Positions 40,012 through 45,544 of a DNA stretch of 64,000 nucleotides are shown in pieces. The stretch is from positions 40,210-104,209 of the forward strand of contig CAIZQU010000109.1 in the NCBI GenBank assembly GCA_903935205.1, written 5' to 3'. This DNA is from an uncultured cyanobacterium (GTDB taxonomy: Bacteria > Cyanobacteriota > Cyanobacteriia > PCC-6307 > Cyanobiaceae). The stretch's first letter is position 1, and each line of letters begins with the position of its first letter. Under the pieces are notes generated by a model, which was not told the origin of the DNA, searched no databases, and was given only the letters and a program-made list of their open reading frames with translations. Both the position numbers and the translations under genes were made by a program.

Positions 40012-41694
40012 ATGCCTGAGGCCCCGTCTGCGGCCCGGGTGTTGTTCGATCCGATCGCCGATGCCCTGGCGGCGATCCGCAACGGCGAAGCGATCGTGGT
40101 GGTGGACGATGAAAATCGCGAGAACGAGGGCGATCTGATCTGTGCGGCCCAGTTCGCTACCCCCCAGCAGATCAACTTCATGGCCACCGCCGCCCGGGGC
40201 CTGATCTGCCTGGCGATGGAGGGGGAGCGGCTCGACGCCCTCGATCTGCCGTTGATGGTGGATCGCAACACCGACAGCAATCAGACCGCCTTCACGGTGA
40301 GTGTTGACGCCGGCCCGGAAAGCGGCGTGAGCACCGGCATCTCCGCCGAAGACCGGGCTCGCACGATCCAGGTGGCGATCCACCCGGAGACCCGCCCCCG
40401 GGATCTGCGCCGTCCGGGCCACATCTTTCCGTTGCGGGCCCGCGATGGCGGTGTGCTCAAGCGCGCCGGCCACACGGAAGCGGCGGTCGACCTGGCCCGC
40501 CTGGCGGGGCTCTATCCAGCCGGTGTGATCTGCGAAATCCAGAATGCCGATGGCTCGATGGCCCGGCTGCCCCAGCTGGTCGACTACGCCCGCGATCACG
40601 GCCTGAAGCTGATCTCGATCGCCGATCTGATCCGCTATCGGCTCGACACCGAACGGTTCGTGCGGCGCCAGGCGGAGGCGGCCCTGCCCAGCAGCTTCGG
40701 CACTTTCCGGGCGATCGGCTTCCGCAATGAGCTCGATGGCAGCGAGCATGTGGCGATCGTCAAGGGCCATCCCGAGCGGGCCGTCGGTCCGGTGCTGGTG
40801 CGTGTCCATTCCGAGTGCCTCACCGGCGATGCCTTCGGCTCCCTGCGCTGCGACTGTCGCCCCCAGCTGGAGGCGGCGCTGCGGATGATCGAGGCCGCCG
40901 GTGAAGGTCTGGTGGTCTACCTGCGCCAGGAGGGCCGGGGCATCGGCCTGATCAACAAATTACGCGCCTATTCCCTTCAGGATGGCGGTCTCGATACGGT
41001 CGAGGCCAATGAGCGGCTCGGCTTTGCCGCCGACCTGCGCAACTATGGCGTCGGCGCCCAGATCCTCAGCGACCTTGGCGTGCGGCGGCTGCGGCTGATC
41101 ACCAACAACCCCCGCAAGATTGCCGGCCTGGGTGGCTATGGGCTGGTGGTGGAAGACCGGGTGCCGTTGGTGATGGATCCCGGTGCTCACAACGCCGCGT
41201 ATCTCAACGCCAAGCGCCTCAAGCTTGGCCACCTGATGGAGAGCGGCACCCAGCCTGCCGTCGTCGATGCCACCCCCCATGGCCTCAGCGCCGTGCTGGC
41301 CTGGCGTGGCGAAGCCGATGAGCGCATCGCCACCGAGCGGGTCGCGGCCCTGGCGGCCTGGGCCCAGAAGCGGGAGCTGCGGCTTGAACGCGAGGAGCAC
41401 CCACGGCTGCGGGCCCTGCTCGACCAGCCCCGGATCGCCCTGCTGCTCAGTGCCGCCCCAGACCGCCAGCTGAGTGCGGCCGACCTGGCCGGACCGCTGA
41501 TGGTGATGGCCCGCTGGCCCCAGACCCTCGGGGTGGGCCTGCTGCTGACCCCTGATCAGCGCCGCCACAGCCATCCGAGCGTTGACCTGGAGCCTGAACA
41601 GCGGCCCCTGGGTGATCTGCAGGAGGGCGCCGACCCGGCCACCTGCCCCCTGCTCAACCTCACCCCCGGTGCCTTCATCCGCTGGGACGGGTAG
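40012..41694 (+). CDS. ribBA: bifunctional DHBP synthase / GTP cyclohydrolase II
   Basis: [68 protein letters not shown]. Confidence 0.97.
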
Positions 41695-41937
41695 GGCGAG
41701 GGGTGTAGGCGGACGCCCCTTCCAGCCATCGGTTCCGACCCGTGGCGCCCACCCCAAGCAGTTGGCCCGCACCCCCGATGGCGGGCTCTGGCCCCGCCAC
41801 ATCCCCGGTGGCAGCTCCATCCTGCCGGTGGTGCTGGAGGAGCTGATCCTGGCCCTGCTTGATGGCAGCGGACCCGACGATCTGGAGCGCTGGTTGGCGG
41901 CCCTGCAGGGCTGTGCTGAATCGAGCCGTCGCGGTGA

Positions 41938-44900
41938 TCAGGATTCTCCGCTGCCCTGCAGCATCTGTCTGAGGGTCTCCACTTTGTCGTGATCGACCGG
42001 GGCGAGACGTCCCTGCTGCTGCAACGTCTCCAGGATCGCCAGGGCACGCTGCAGCAGCAGCGGCTCGATCGGCAGCGCCGACCCCCCCACCCTGACCAGG
42101 GACGAGACCAGATCAAGCTGAAAGTCGGCCCGATCCGGCTCCGCCGCCGCCAGCCGCTCCTTAATCTCCAGGCTGGCCTGATAGGCCTGCCGTGCCGCTT
42201 CGCCCTGGCCCAGCGCCCCATACAGATCGCCCATCCTGTTGAACGACACCGACAGGTCGCGTTGGTAGTCGGCCCGATCCGGCTCCGCCGCCGCGCGCTG
42301 CTGAAATCGCTCCAGCAGCTGCCTTTGGCGAGCCACGGCGCGCTCGGTCAGGCCGAGGGACAGGTGCGCCCTGGCTTCCGCATCCGCCAGGGGGGGGGCG
42401 CCGCGATGGTCGAGCGGCAGGGTTTCCAGCACTTCGGCCGCAAGGGCGGCGACGGCCCTGGTCTGCCCCTGCTGCTGCAAGTGGTTCAGCAAGGCCGCCG
42501 CCAGGCCAGCGGCGTCATCGCGGTGGCCCCCCTGCAGCAGGTTGCGCAGGGCTTCGATGCCATCCTCCAGGCTGCGGCTCTGTTGCAGCCGCCAGAGGCG
42601 AAAGCTGGCGGCGCGCCGGCAGCGTGCCGAGCGGTCGTGCGGGCTGCTCTGGCGGGCGAGGCCTTCGGCGCTCCAGCGGTGCACCCAGGCCTGGCCCTCC
42701 TCGGAGAGCACCACCAGTGACAGGGCCGCCAGCCGCTGCAGGGCCTCCTGCAGCTCAGAGACCCTCGCCTCAGCCGCTGGCGCGGCCATCGCCTCGCCCA
42801 GGTCAGCATCCCCCGCCTGGACCAGCATCCGCGCCAGTTCCGCCGGCGCCACCGGCAGGTTCGACACCGCCAGCTGCAGCAGCACCTCCTCGTCGCCGCG
42901 CCGGCGGGCGATCGCCACCAGCTCGTCCAGCAACACATCGCGCAGGCCCAGGGTCAACACCTGCTGCAGTCGCTCCTCCAGGCCGCTGGTCGCGTCCGGC
43001 AGCGCCAGTCCGCAGTCGGCCAGGGCCTGCTCCAACCGCTGCCGCACCGCCGGCAGACGAGCTTCGCCCTGCCGCAGCAAGGCATCAAGAAACTCCAGCA
43101 GCCGCGGGTGGCCGCCGATCCTGCGCAGAACCGCCACCAGCTCCTCCGCCGGCTGTTGGCGCAGGCCCGGAAGCCGTTGCACCAGCTTGCGGGTTTCAGC
43201 TCCGCTCAAGGGGCCCAGGGGCACCAGCTTCAGCGATGCCATCGCCCGCGGCAGCGGATGGCGGCAGGTGAGCAGCAACCGGCCCCGGCGGGCCGCCGCC
43301 AGCAGCAGCTCCAGGTTGGCGGCGGTGTCGCGGTCGAGAAAGGATTCCCCACCCACGCTCAGGTTGCGCTCGAAGTCGTCGAGCACCAGCAGCAGCGGTT
43401 CCTGGGTCAGAACCTGCTGCAGCAGCCGCAGCCGCAGCTCCTCGTCCAGGCCGTCCTGCCGCAGGGCCTCGGCCAGGGGCCGCAAGGCCGGGCGTCCCGC
43501 CAGGGCCAGGGTCAGACCCAGCTCCCGGCCGATCGCCAGCAGATCAAAGCGACCGCTGTGGCTGGCGATCAGCCAGCCGTCGTCCGCCAGTCGCTGCATC
43601 ACCCGCCCGGCCACACTGCTCTTGCCCACCCCGCCGATGCCGCTCAGCAGCACGCCCCCCGGTGCCCCGTCGCGCAGCCGGCGCAGGCAGAGGCGCAGCT
43701 CCCGGCGCCGGCCCACCAGATCACCGATCGCCAGCTGGGGCACGGGGCCGAGCAGCGGTGGCGAGGGCGGCGTCCGCAGCGGCTGCTTGTCGGCGCCCAG
43801 ATCCGCCAGGGGCCCTTCCTCGCCCGCCCCATAGAGGGCGGCGGTGGCGGCCTCCGGCAGGGTGTCGGCCAGGGGGGCTCCCTGCTCCAGCCGCTGCAAC
43901 CGCTCGGCCTCCAGCTCCTGTCGCGCTGCGGCCAGGGCGCGGCTGGCCAGCACGGGTTCACCGCGGCTGAGGTGGCCGTAGAAGGCGCGGGCCAGGTCGG
44001 CGGCATAGCGGTCGCTCACCGTGGTCTGCATCGCCACCACGCTGGGGATGCCCGCCTGGATCAGGGCCTGGGCCAGGCTGGCGGTGGTGCCCGCTTCAAC
44101 GCCGCCGTGACAGCTGTTGAGCACCACCAGGGGCAGGGGGCGGCCCAGCGGACGCAGCGGGGCCACCAACAGCTCCGCCGTGACCGGCACCGCCTGGCCG
44201 AGTTCATCCTCCAGCTCCAGCGCCCCGGGGGTGCCGTGACAGCTGAGGTGAAGCACGTGGTAGGCATCGGCGGCGATCGCGGCGGCGATCTGCTCGGGAT
44301 GGCCCACCTCCAGAATCTTCACCGCCACGTTGTCGTGCCGTTGGGCCGGTTCCACGGCATCGAGGATGTTCTGCAGCTCCCGCTCGTGGTCGAGCAGCGG
44401 GGAGCTGGTGCCCTGATCCGGAGCACCCACCGCCACCAGCACCTTCAGCGGCCCCGGCAGCGGTGGCAGCGGCGCCGCGGCCGGGGCGGGCAGTCGGCGG
44501 CGCAACAGCACTGCGGGCCGCAGGGCGAGCAGGCGTCCATCAGCCAGCGGCAGCACTTCATAGGGCAACCCCAGCAGCTCCGGATCCTCCGCCTCGATCT
44601 CCACCAGCACCGTCACGCCCACCCCGGCGCCATCCACCAGCCGGCCCAGGGCTGCGGCGGCGCCCGGCGGTAGGCAGAACCCCGCCAGAGCCTGGCCGAG
44701 GGCGCGCAGCTCCCCCTCCATCGCCGCCCGGCCGGTGGCCGCCCAGTCGCGGCTGCCGCCACCGAAGCCTCGCAGAAAGGCGCGGCGGCCCTCCAGAAGC
44801 GGAGCGGGAATGGCCGGATGCGTCGCTTCGAACGGTCCCTGGTCGCCCACCATCGCCTGCACCGCGATGGCGCCATCACCGCGGCGCCCCAGTTGCAAAC

Positions 44901-45327
44901 GCACCCGCTCCAGGCGACCTGCCGCCGGCTGACCCAGGGGGGGCGGCCCGGCCCGGCGGTGCAGCAGGGCAGCGGCGATGCTCTGGTGATCCTCGATCGA
45001 AAGGCGGCAGAGGGGCTTGAGCAGCGGTGGAATCGGGGCGTCGTTGCCGACCTGCACGGGAATCAGGAGCTGGCCGTTCTTGATCCGCTCGTAGGTGAGG
45101 GTTGCCACCTCGGCGCTGACCCATGGGCTCAACAGCGACTGGGCCGAAAACACGATCAGGCCGGCATCGGCCTGCTCCAGCCCCTGGTTCATCTTGGCGA
45201 TGATGTCGTCGCCGGGGCCGATCTCCCAGATGTCCAGCCAGGCGTCGATTCCCTGCTGGCGGAGGTAGCGGGCCAGCGCTTCTACGGCCGCTTTATCCCT
45301 GGAGGAATGGCTCAGAAAGACCCGCAT
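41938..45327 (-). CDS. TIR - CHAT - STAND/NB-ARC-like NTPase - TPR fusion protein
   Basis: Start MRVFLSHSSRDKAAVEALARYLRQQGIDAWLDIWEIGPGD (TIR); YHVLHLSCHGTPG and LPLVVLNSCHGGVEAG (CHAT His/Cys); GIGGVGKSSVAG (Walker A), LLLVLDDFERN (Walker B); C-terminal GDLYGALGQGEAARQAYQASLEIKERL (TPR-like). Confidence 0.9.
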   Translation of the reverse strand: MRVFLSHSSRDKAAVEALARYLRQQGIDAWLDIWEIGPGDDIIAKMNQGLEQADAGLIVFSAQSLLSPWVSAEVATLTYERIKNGQLLIPVQVGNDAPIPPLLKPLCRLSIEDHQSIAAALLHRRAGPPPLGQPAAGRLERVRLQLGRRGDGAIAVQAMVGDQGPFEATHPAIPAPLLEGRRAFLRGFGGGSRDWAATGRAAMEGELRALGQALAGFCLPPGAAAALGRLVDGAGVGVTVLVEIEAEDPELLGLPYEVLPLADGRLLALRPAVLLRRRLPAPAAAPLPPLPGPLKVLVAVGAPDQGTSSPLLDHERELQNILDAVEPAQRHDNVAVKILEVGHPEQIAAAIAADAYHVLHLSCHGTPGALELEDELGQAVPVTAELLVAPLRPLGRPLPLVVLNSCHGGVEAGTTASLAQALIQAGIPSVVAMQTTVSDRYAADLARAFYGHLSRGEPVLASRALAAARQELEAERLQRLEQGAPLADTLPEAATAALYGAGEEGPLADLGADKQPLRTPPSPPLLGPVPQLAIGDLVGRRRELRLCLRRLRDGAPGGVLLSGIGGVGKSSVAGRVMQRLADDGWLIASHSGRFDLLAIGRELGLTLALAGRPALRPLAEALRQDGLDEELRLRLLQQVLTQEPLLLVLDDFERNLSVGGESFLDRDTAANLELLLAAARRGRLLLTCRHPLPRAMASLKLVPLGPLSGAETRKLVQRLPGLRQQPAEELVAVLRRIGGHPRLLEFLDALLRQGEARLPAVRQRLEQALADCGLALPDATSGLEERLQQVLTLGLRDVLLDELVAIARRRGDEEVLLQLAVSNLPVAPAELARMLVQAGDADLGEAMAAPAAEARVSELQEALQRLAALSLVVLSEEGQAWVHRWSAEGLARQSSPHDRSARCRRAASFRLWRLQQSRSLEDGIEALRNLLQGGHRDDAAGLAAALLNHLQQQGQTRAVAALAAEVLETLPLDHRGAPPLADAEARAHLSLGLTERAVARQRQLLERFQQRAAAEPDRADYQRDLSVSFNRMGDLYGALGQGEAARQAYQASLEIKERLAAAEPDRADFQLDLVSSLVRVGGSALPIEPLLLQRALAILETLQQQGRLAPVDHDKVETLRQMLQGSGES

Positions 45328-45519: not shown

Positions 45520-45544
45520 AAAAAGCCCCGGGGATTCCGGGGCT
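45520..45544 (-). terminator. Rho-independent terminator downstream of petJ
   Basis: On - strand: agccccgg-aatcc-ccggggct followed by tttt. Confidence 0.8.

What the first reader, a model, noticed from the sequence alone, without database searches (positions are those of the whole stretch)
41938..45327. Single-chain TIR + CHAT + STAND NTPase + TPR protein: candidate dual-effector immune or cell-death sensor
Seen directly: an N-terminal TIR pattern (MRVFLSHSSRDKAAVEALARYLRQQGIDAWLDIWEIGPGDDI...SPWVSAEVATLTYE, with the conserved W-V-x-x-E region); a CHAT region with both catalytic motifs (HLSCHGTPG, LNSCHGG); Walker A GIGGVGKSSVAG and Walker B LLLVLDDFERN; and TPR-like C-terminal repeats. In known bacterial STAND systems, TIR domains consume or cyclise NAD and CHAT domains are caspase-like proteases, usually as alternative effectors on a shared NTPase/TPR chassis. 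Both potential effectors in one polypeptide is unusual. TIR might instead act as an adaptor or signal generator that gates CHAT. The gene follows a petJ terminator on the same strand and has no obvious partner gene.
Basis: partly seen in the sequence, partly recalled or inferred. Interest (0 to 1): 0.88.

Follow-up and report, generated by a model that had tools for sequence, protein, structure and literature searches.

The report
TIR–CHAT–STAND dual-effector immune sensor
This cyanobacterium carries a single-gene, probably anti-phage alarm protein that holds two different death enzymes, an NAD-cleaving type (TIR) and a caspase-like protease (CHAT), on one switch-and-sensor chassis, and it belongs to a rare, widely scattered family in which both active sites are kept.

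Summary
Window 41938-45327 (-) is an intact 1,129-aa gene: TIR (Pfam 1.8e-24), CHAT (3.2e-24), STAND-type P-loop NTPase (AAA_16, 8.3e-14) and a short TPR-like array. It is not a one-off. At least 12 other members of the same family ('clade A', roughly 34-57% identity) occur in Pseudomonadota, Acidobacteriota, Chloroflexota, Planctomycetota and another Synechococcus. A second family ('clade B', ~1,480 aa) is more common; this genome has one too. On a CHAT+NTPase tree the two families are separated by CHAT-STANDs without TIR (AU p = 0.00026). Across the TIR-CHAT proteins the TIR glutamate is kept in 36/36, the CHAT histidine in 37/37 and the CHAT cysteine in 36/37. In clade A, TIR and CHAT are the two best-conserved segments and the linker between them the least. 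Best reading: a stand-alone, horizontally moving STAND sensor with two enzymatic effectors, probably anti-phage abortive infection; function is inferred. A TIR+CHAT polypeptide has been noted before (Thiohalocapsa DGR target, PMC10907252), but I found no study of the architecture in the open-access papers searched. New variant of a known kind.

The parts
41938..45327 (-). TIR-CHAT-STAND-TPR gene, 1,129 aa
   Evidence: open frame; Pfam; orthologues over the full length, e.g. L054 51% over residues 1-1129
44992..45327 (-). TIR domain, residues 1-112
   Evidence: TIR_2 1.8e-24; nearest solved chains are bacterial TIRs 7uxr and AbTIR 7uwg/8g83
45109..45111 (-). putative TIR catalytic Glu73 (W69-x3-E73)
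   Evidence: Glu in 36 of 36 TIR-CHAT proteins with that column, 13 of 13 in clade A; aligned to W-x3-E of AbTIR
44719..44991 (-). linker between TIR and CHAT, residues 113-203
   Evidence: least conserved segment of clade A, mean pairwise identity 0.28, no invariant column
43888..44718 (-). CHAT caspase-like domain, residues 204-480
   Evidence: CHAT 3.2e-24; clade-A profile matches solved SAVED-CHAT 8tl0 at 1.2e-14
44236..44238 (-). putative CHAT catalytic His364
   Evidence: His in 37 of 37; aligned with HG of 8tl0
44110..44112 (-). putative CHAT catalytic Cys406
   Evidence: Cys in 36 of 37; aligned with the Cys of 8tl0 LNACC
43228..43725 (-). STAND NTPase nucleotide-binding domain, residues 535-700 (Walker A 43618-43641, Walker B 43375-43395)
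   Evidence: AAA_16 8.3e-14; K569, S570, D650 invariant where present; profile matches TPR-sensor PH0952 6mfv at 2.5e-12 for the search
42508..43227 (-). helical / winged-helix-like arm of the NTPase with GHPR motif, residues 701-940
   Evidence: H740, P741, R742 in 11 of 11 clade-A proteins reaching that region; fold not modelled
41941..42507 (-). C-terminal TPR-like array, residues 941-1129 (48-aa unit from residue 1015, degenerate last unit from 1063)
   Evidence: weak TPR hits; 48-aa units counted; profile matches designed and natural TPR chains
45524..45544 (-). terminator of petJ, upstream of this gene
   Evidence: stem of 8 pairs followed by TTTTGATTGG

Best explanation
It is a stand-alone bacterial NLR-like (STAND) immune sensor with two enzymatic effectors in one chain. 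Model: the C-terminal TPR-like array holds the protein off until it binds a trigger, probably a phage protein. The NTPase then exchanges nucleotide and oligomerises. Oligomerisation packs the TIR domains together, which TIRs need to build their composite NAD-binding site, and frees or aligns the CHAT His-Cys dyad. The cell then loses NAD+ (or makes a cyclic-ADP-ribose-type signal) and suffers protein cleavage, and dies or stops growing before phage release. Shown here: domain order, intact catalytic motifs, their conservation in distant relatives, rarity and phylum-hopping distribution, absence of a partner gene. Inferred: trigger, oligomerisation, both activities, and defence as the purpose.
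For: Strong Pfam matches for TIR, CHAT and NTPase. TIR Glu 36/36, CHAT His 37/37, CHAT Cys 36/37 across two TIR-CHAT families. In clade A the two most conserved segments are TIR (mean identity 0.51) and CHAT (0.54) while the linker is 0.28, so both look under purifying selection. Clade A is one clade on the CHAT+NTPase tree (100/99) and one group on the TIR tree (91/86), so the TIR has stayed with its CHAT-STAND rather than being swapped. TIR is combined with CHAT-STAND in two clades separated by TIR-less CHAT-STANDs (AU p 0.00026). Very patchy distribution with Cyanobacteriota, Chloroflexota, Acidobacteriota and Pseudomonadota members intermixed, the pattern of mobile defence genes. The TPR array varies in copy number between orthologues, with near-identical units, as a sensor might. 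TIR is nearest in sequence to catalytic bacterial TIRs; the CHAT profile matches a CHAT-domain defence protease structure, 8tl0; PADLOC defence models hit the TIR and CHAT regions.
Against: No activity or phage data. No PADLOC or NCBIfam model covers the whole protein. The gene lies between housekeeping genes (ribBA, petJ), not in an evident defence island; neighbours of orthologues are mostly unrelated. No viral contig carries it. TIR-less CHAT-STANDs also keep the dyad (46/46), so CHAT conservation alone is not special to this architecture.
Confidence: 0.55

Rival explanations
1. One effector, one gate: CHAT is the only executioner, and the TIR serves to drive oligomerisation or makes an NAD-derived signal that licenses CHAT.
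For: TIR assemblies are known scaffolds; PMC12847820 describes two-stranded TIR assemblies, and PMC8195603 treats TIR as a source of an NAD-derived signal in conflict systems. TIR-less CHAT-STANDs exist as complete proteins, so CHAT can be sufficient.
Against: E73 and W69 are invariant in 36 TIRs, which a pure scaffold would not need; no domain that would sense an ADP-ribose-type signal was found in the chain.
Confidence: 0.2
2. One effector, one processor: CHAT cuts the chain in the poorly conserved linker to release an active TIR (or cuts one specific host protein), so the lethal step is NAD loss.
For: The linker between TIR and CHAT is the least conserved segment (0.28). One tandem paralogue in Cyanobium (L028 6674-12025) has lost the CHAT Cys (Phe) but kept TIR Glu, beside an intact copy, as if CHAT could act in trans. 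The CHAT protease Csx29 makes a single precise cut (PMC10028731).
Against: The linker aligns poorly with no invariant column, so no conserved cleavage motif is evident; TIRs generally need clustering, which release would undo.
Confidence: 0.15
3. Not defence: a signalling or developmental regulator, related to cyanobacterial CHAT proteins such as HetF.
For: Weak NCBIfam HetF match to the CHAT region (2.2e-9, score 36 against a cut-off of 1200); sits among housekeeping genes.
Against: Host range crosses many phyla with no shared development; no full-length match in 36 other sampled genomes of the genus nor in 338 of 339 cyanobacteria sampled, so it is dispensable; the HetF match is only the shared CHAT fold.
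Confidence: 0.08
4. Recently captured gene with no present function in this host.
For: Lies at a synteny breakpoint: petJ-SDR is kept in 10 congeners and ribBA in 41 genomes, but petJ and ribBA were not found together in the stretches read; no sigma-70-like promoter was matched between the petJ terminator and the ATG; one orthologue (Defluviicoccus) ends beside a transposase.
Against: Reading frame of 1,129 codons is intact with all motifs; matched in full length to a Chloroflexota orthologue. The simple promoter scan has little power in GC-rich cyanobacteria.
Confidence: 0.05

Closest known systems
Clade-B TIR-CHAT-STAND-TPR proteins (unnamed; e.g. own-genome L027 2485-7074, Nodosilinea nodulosa L125, Nitrosomonas L120)
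   Same: Same order TIR, CHAT, STAND NTPase, TPR; same catalytic residues
   Different: ~26-30% identity, ~350 aa longer with many TPRs, separate clade on the CHAT+NTPase tree
Thiohalocapsa PB-PSB1 DGR 2 target (PMC10907252)
   Same: CHAT and TIR in one polypeptide, described as key defence effector domains
   Different: Target of a diversity-generating retroelement; its STAND/TPR content is not stated in the passages read
TIR-STAND sensors and plant TIR-NLRs
   Same: N-terminal TIR effector on an NTPase with a C-terminal sensor; the profile reaches Roq1 through its TIR
   Different: One effector; no CHAT; sensor is LRR or other repeats (established knowledge)
TIR-less CHAT-STAND-TPR proteins of Nostoc, Microcoleus and others
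   Same: CHAT dyad, NTPase
   Different: No TIR; distinct clades
SAVED-CHAT type protease (8tl0) and Csx29 TPR-CHAT (Craspase)
   Same: CHAT protease used in prokaryotic immunity; 8tl0 matches the clade-A CHAT profile at 1.2e-14
   Different: Switched by a second messenger or by a CRISPR complex, not by a built-in STAND NTPase; no TIR

Membership tests
TIR domain, catalytic (NADase/cyclase) type | TIR profile match above curated cut-off | tested here: met
   TIR_2 87 bits against 28; TIR 29.8 against 21.3
TIR domain, catalytic (NADase/cyclase) type | Catalytic Glu in aromatic-x3-E | tested here: met
   W69-x3-E73; 36/36; aligned with AbTIR. That this Glu is the catalytic one is established knowledge of the family; SpbK Y188/E192 has the same spacing (PMC12847820)
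TIR domain, catalytic (NADase/cyclase) type | NAD+ consumption | not testable with these tools
   needs an assay
CHAT protease | CHAT profile match above curated cut-off | tested here: met
   86.3 bits against 24
CHAT protease | His-Cys dyad | tested here: met
   H364 37/37, C406 36/37; aligned to 8tl0
CHAT protease | dyad geometry in a folded model | not tested
STAND NTPase | Walker A and B, downstream Arg, GxP-type motif, C-terminal helical repeats | tested here: met
   GIGGVGKS, LLLVLDD, R689, GHPR; AAA_16 above cut-off, but NACHT and AAA_22 below theirs; profile matches 6mfv
Known anti-phage system (PADLOC/NCBIfam model) | whole-protein match to a named system | tested here: not met
   only partial matches to TIR or CHAT parts of other systems
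Clade-A TIR-CHAT-STAND family defined here | monophyly on CHAT+NTPase and on TIR trees | tested here: met
   100/99; 91/86, unstarred
HetF | match above NCBIfam equivalog cut-off | tested here: not met
   36 bits against 1200

The most novel reading that the evidence does not exclude
A true two-effector NLR: one oligomer simultaneously activates an NADase and a caspase-like protease, giving a redundant kill that a phage cannot block by disarming one enzyme, and this pairing was assembled at least twice.
Probability: 0.35. Interest if true: 0.8.

Novelty: new variant of a known kind. Interest (0 to 1): 0.52.

Why it matters
Bacterial STAND sensors are usually described with interchangeable single effectors. 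A family that fuses two and keeps both active sites across phyla suggests the pair works together, and it makes a clean question testable: does one activation event drive NAD loss and proteolysis together, or does one enzyme license the other? That bears on why animal and plant immunity place these same two death enzymes in different pathways, and on how defence systems resist phage counter-measures.

Tried and rejected
Single-sequence scan of genome contigs found nothing, because the peptide patterns were not conserved; the alignment query then worked. I rejected 'unique architecture' after finding clades A and B. I rejected a conserved operon partner. I tested for phage or plasmid carriage: no relative on viral contigs; plasmid hits cover only the TIR, apart from one TPR-only hit. 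Two independent TIR acquisitions is supported by the CHAT+NTPase tree, but the TIR tree alone does not reject one origin (AU p 0.29), and one gain with losses is not excluded. A clean empty site could not be shown; the gene is at a rearrangement junction instead.

Full report
What is there. The gene at 41938-45327 on the minus strand is an intact 1,129-codon frame. Pfam finds TIR_2 at residues 3-111 (E 1.8e-24), CHAT at 209-472 (3.2e-24), AAA_16 at 537-685 (8.3e-14), all above curated cut-offs, and a weak TPR at 1029-1057. Catalytic motifs are W69-x3-E73 (TIR), H364 and C406 (CHAT), Walker A GIGGVGKS 563-570, Walker B 645-651, R689 and GHPR 739-742. The TPR part is small: one 48-aa unit and a degenerate last unit.

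It has relatives. A first scan with the single sequence failed. Within the genus, the same genome and several congeners carry a second, longer kind (~1,480 aa) with the same order of domains, ~26-30% identical. An alignment built from both kinds then reached true orthologues in a collection of 84,980 species genomes (best-segment identities): Blastocatellia 53%, Planctomycetota 54%, Accumulibacter 47%, Azohydromonas 52%, Bryobacterales 44%, Defluviicoccus 54%, Ardenticatenales 53%, Acetobacteraceae 57% (split over two frames), a Synechococcus UW140 fragment 50%, and more distant ones. Several match over the whole chain, including the C-terminus (L054 51% over 1-1129). I call these clade A and the longer kind clade B. 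Clade A is rare: in even samples, only the own genome of 339 in the cyanobacterial phylum and only the query genome of 349 in the phylum of Azohydromonas.

Are both enzymes kept? Over the distinct TIR-CHAT proteins, the TIR Glu is present in 36 of 36 that hold the column, the CHAT His in 37 of 37 and the CHAT Cys in 36 of 37. The one exception, a Cyanobium protein with Phe in place of Cys and an extra N-terminal ParA/MinD-like domain, stands in tandem with an intact copy. In clade A, mean pairwise identity is 0.51 for TIR and 0.54 for CHAT against 0.28 for the linker between them and 0.42-0.46 for the rest. Both domains therefore look under purifying selection, which argues against either being a relic. 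CHAT-STANDs without TIR also keep the dyad (46 of 46), so that part is typical of the CHAT-STAND class. By sequence the TIR is nearest to solved bacterial TIRs including AbTIR (named NAD+ hydrolase in the PDB), with W-x3-E aligned; the clade-A CHAT profile matches the CHAT-domain protein 8tl0 at 1.2e-14 with His and Cys aligned (that this is a SAVED-CHAT protease is from my own knowledge); the NTPase part matches the TPR sensor PH0952 (6mfv) at 2.5e-12.

How did it arise? On a CHAT+NTPase tree, clades A and B are each supported (100/99) and lie apart, with TIR-less CHAT-STANDs beside each; forcing them together is rejected (AU p 0.00026; larger tree). The short TIR tree also gives A and B as separate groups but cannot reject one origin (p 0.29). 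Two assemblies of the pair is thus the favoured reading, with one gain and several losses not excluded. Within clade A, hosts of different phyla are intermixed, which indicates horizontal movement, as expected of defence genes. Clade A is a single group on both trees, so its TIR has apparently not been swapped.

Neighbourhood. In the window the gene follows the petJ terminator (45544-45524) and converges on ribBA. In congeners, petJ stays with its SDR neighbour and ribBA is present in all 41 sampled genomes, but the two are not adjacent in the stretches read; the gene sits at a synteny junction of this genome. No tRNA, no composition shift. Orthologues have no shared neighbour; some lie by mobile elements (Defluviicoccus: IS21 IstB upstream, IS240-type transposase right after a truncated C-terminal region; Synechococcus UW140: a tyrosine recombinase). 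In Accumulibacter a clade-B and a clade-A gene lie in tandem. So it appears to be a single-gene system.

How it most likely works. STAND NTPases are switched by C-terminal sensors and oligomerise (established knowledge). TIR NADases need a two-stranded assembly with composite sites (PMC12847820). The CHAT protease Csx29 is held with a misaligned His-Cys dyad and is aligned allosterically through its TPR part (PMC10028731). Joining these: trigger binding to the TPR-like array, nucleotide exchange, oligomerisation, TIR assembly and CHAT alignment, NAD loss plus proteolysis. All of these steps and the outcome are inference; conservation of both active sites and of the NTPase motifs is shown. The main rivals are TIR as a gate for CHAT and CHAT as a processor that frees TIR in cis or trans; these give opposite predictions for single mutants.

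Known or new? TIR+CHAT in one polypeptide has been mentioned for the Thiohalocapsa DGR 2 target (PMC10907252), and STAND proteins with N-terminal TIR and caspase effectors are mentioned in PMC8195603 (whether in one chain is not clear from the passage). Literature searches found no paper using 'TIR-CHAT' and no dedicated study in the open-access library. No named defence model covers the whole chain. I rate it a new variant of a known kind: a STAND sensor with two effectors, defined here as two families.

Limits. Subscription papers are not in the library, so earlier catalogues of this architecture may have been missed. Trees with long branches carry the caveats printed with them.

Noticed in passing
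L027 95-2560 (+) and 2485-7074 (+), own genome contig C70: A LRR-Roc-COR-TIR (ROCO) protein gene abuts the start of the genome's clade-B TIR-CHAT-STAND-TPR gene: two TIR proteins side by side.
   Followed up: partly
L028 1119-5564 and 6674-12025 (+), Cyanobium G024: Two clade-B TIR-CHAT genes in tandem; the second has an N-terminal ParA/MinD-like domain and its CHAT Cys is replaced by Phe.
   Followed up: partly
L048 801-5783 and 5962-9330 (+), Candidatus Accumulibacter: A clade-B and a clade-A TIR-CHAT gene lie in tandem.
   Followed up: partly
L049 and L053 C-termini: 48-aa TPR-like units (EPDRADYQRDLSVSFNKMGDLY...) vary in copy number between orthologues and are near-identical within a protein, suggesting recent repeat expansion of the sensor.
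   Followed up: partly
L055 1070-2074 (+), Synechococcus UW140: Tyrosine recombinase (Phage_int_SAM_4 type, possibly integron-like) about 4 kb upstream of a clade-A gene.
   Followed up: no
window 41730-41940 (+): Short open stretch between ribBA and the TIR-CHAT gene (orf 41582-41992) with no Pfam match; not found beside ribBA in most congeners read.
   Followed up: partly
L038 1834-5541 (G003, same genus): A TIR-less CHAT-AAA_16 protein of 1,236 aa with about 31% identity over 254-827 to the window protein.
   Followed up: no
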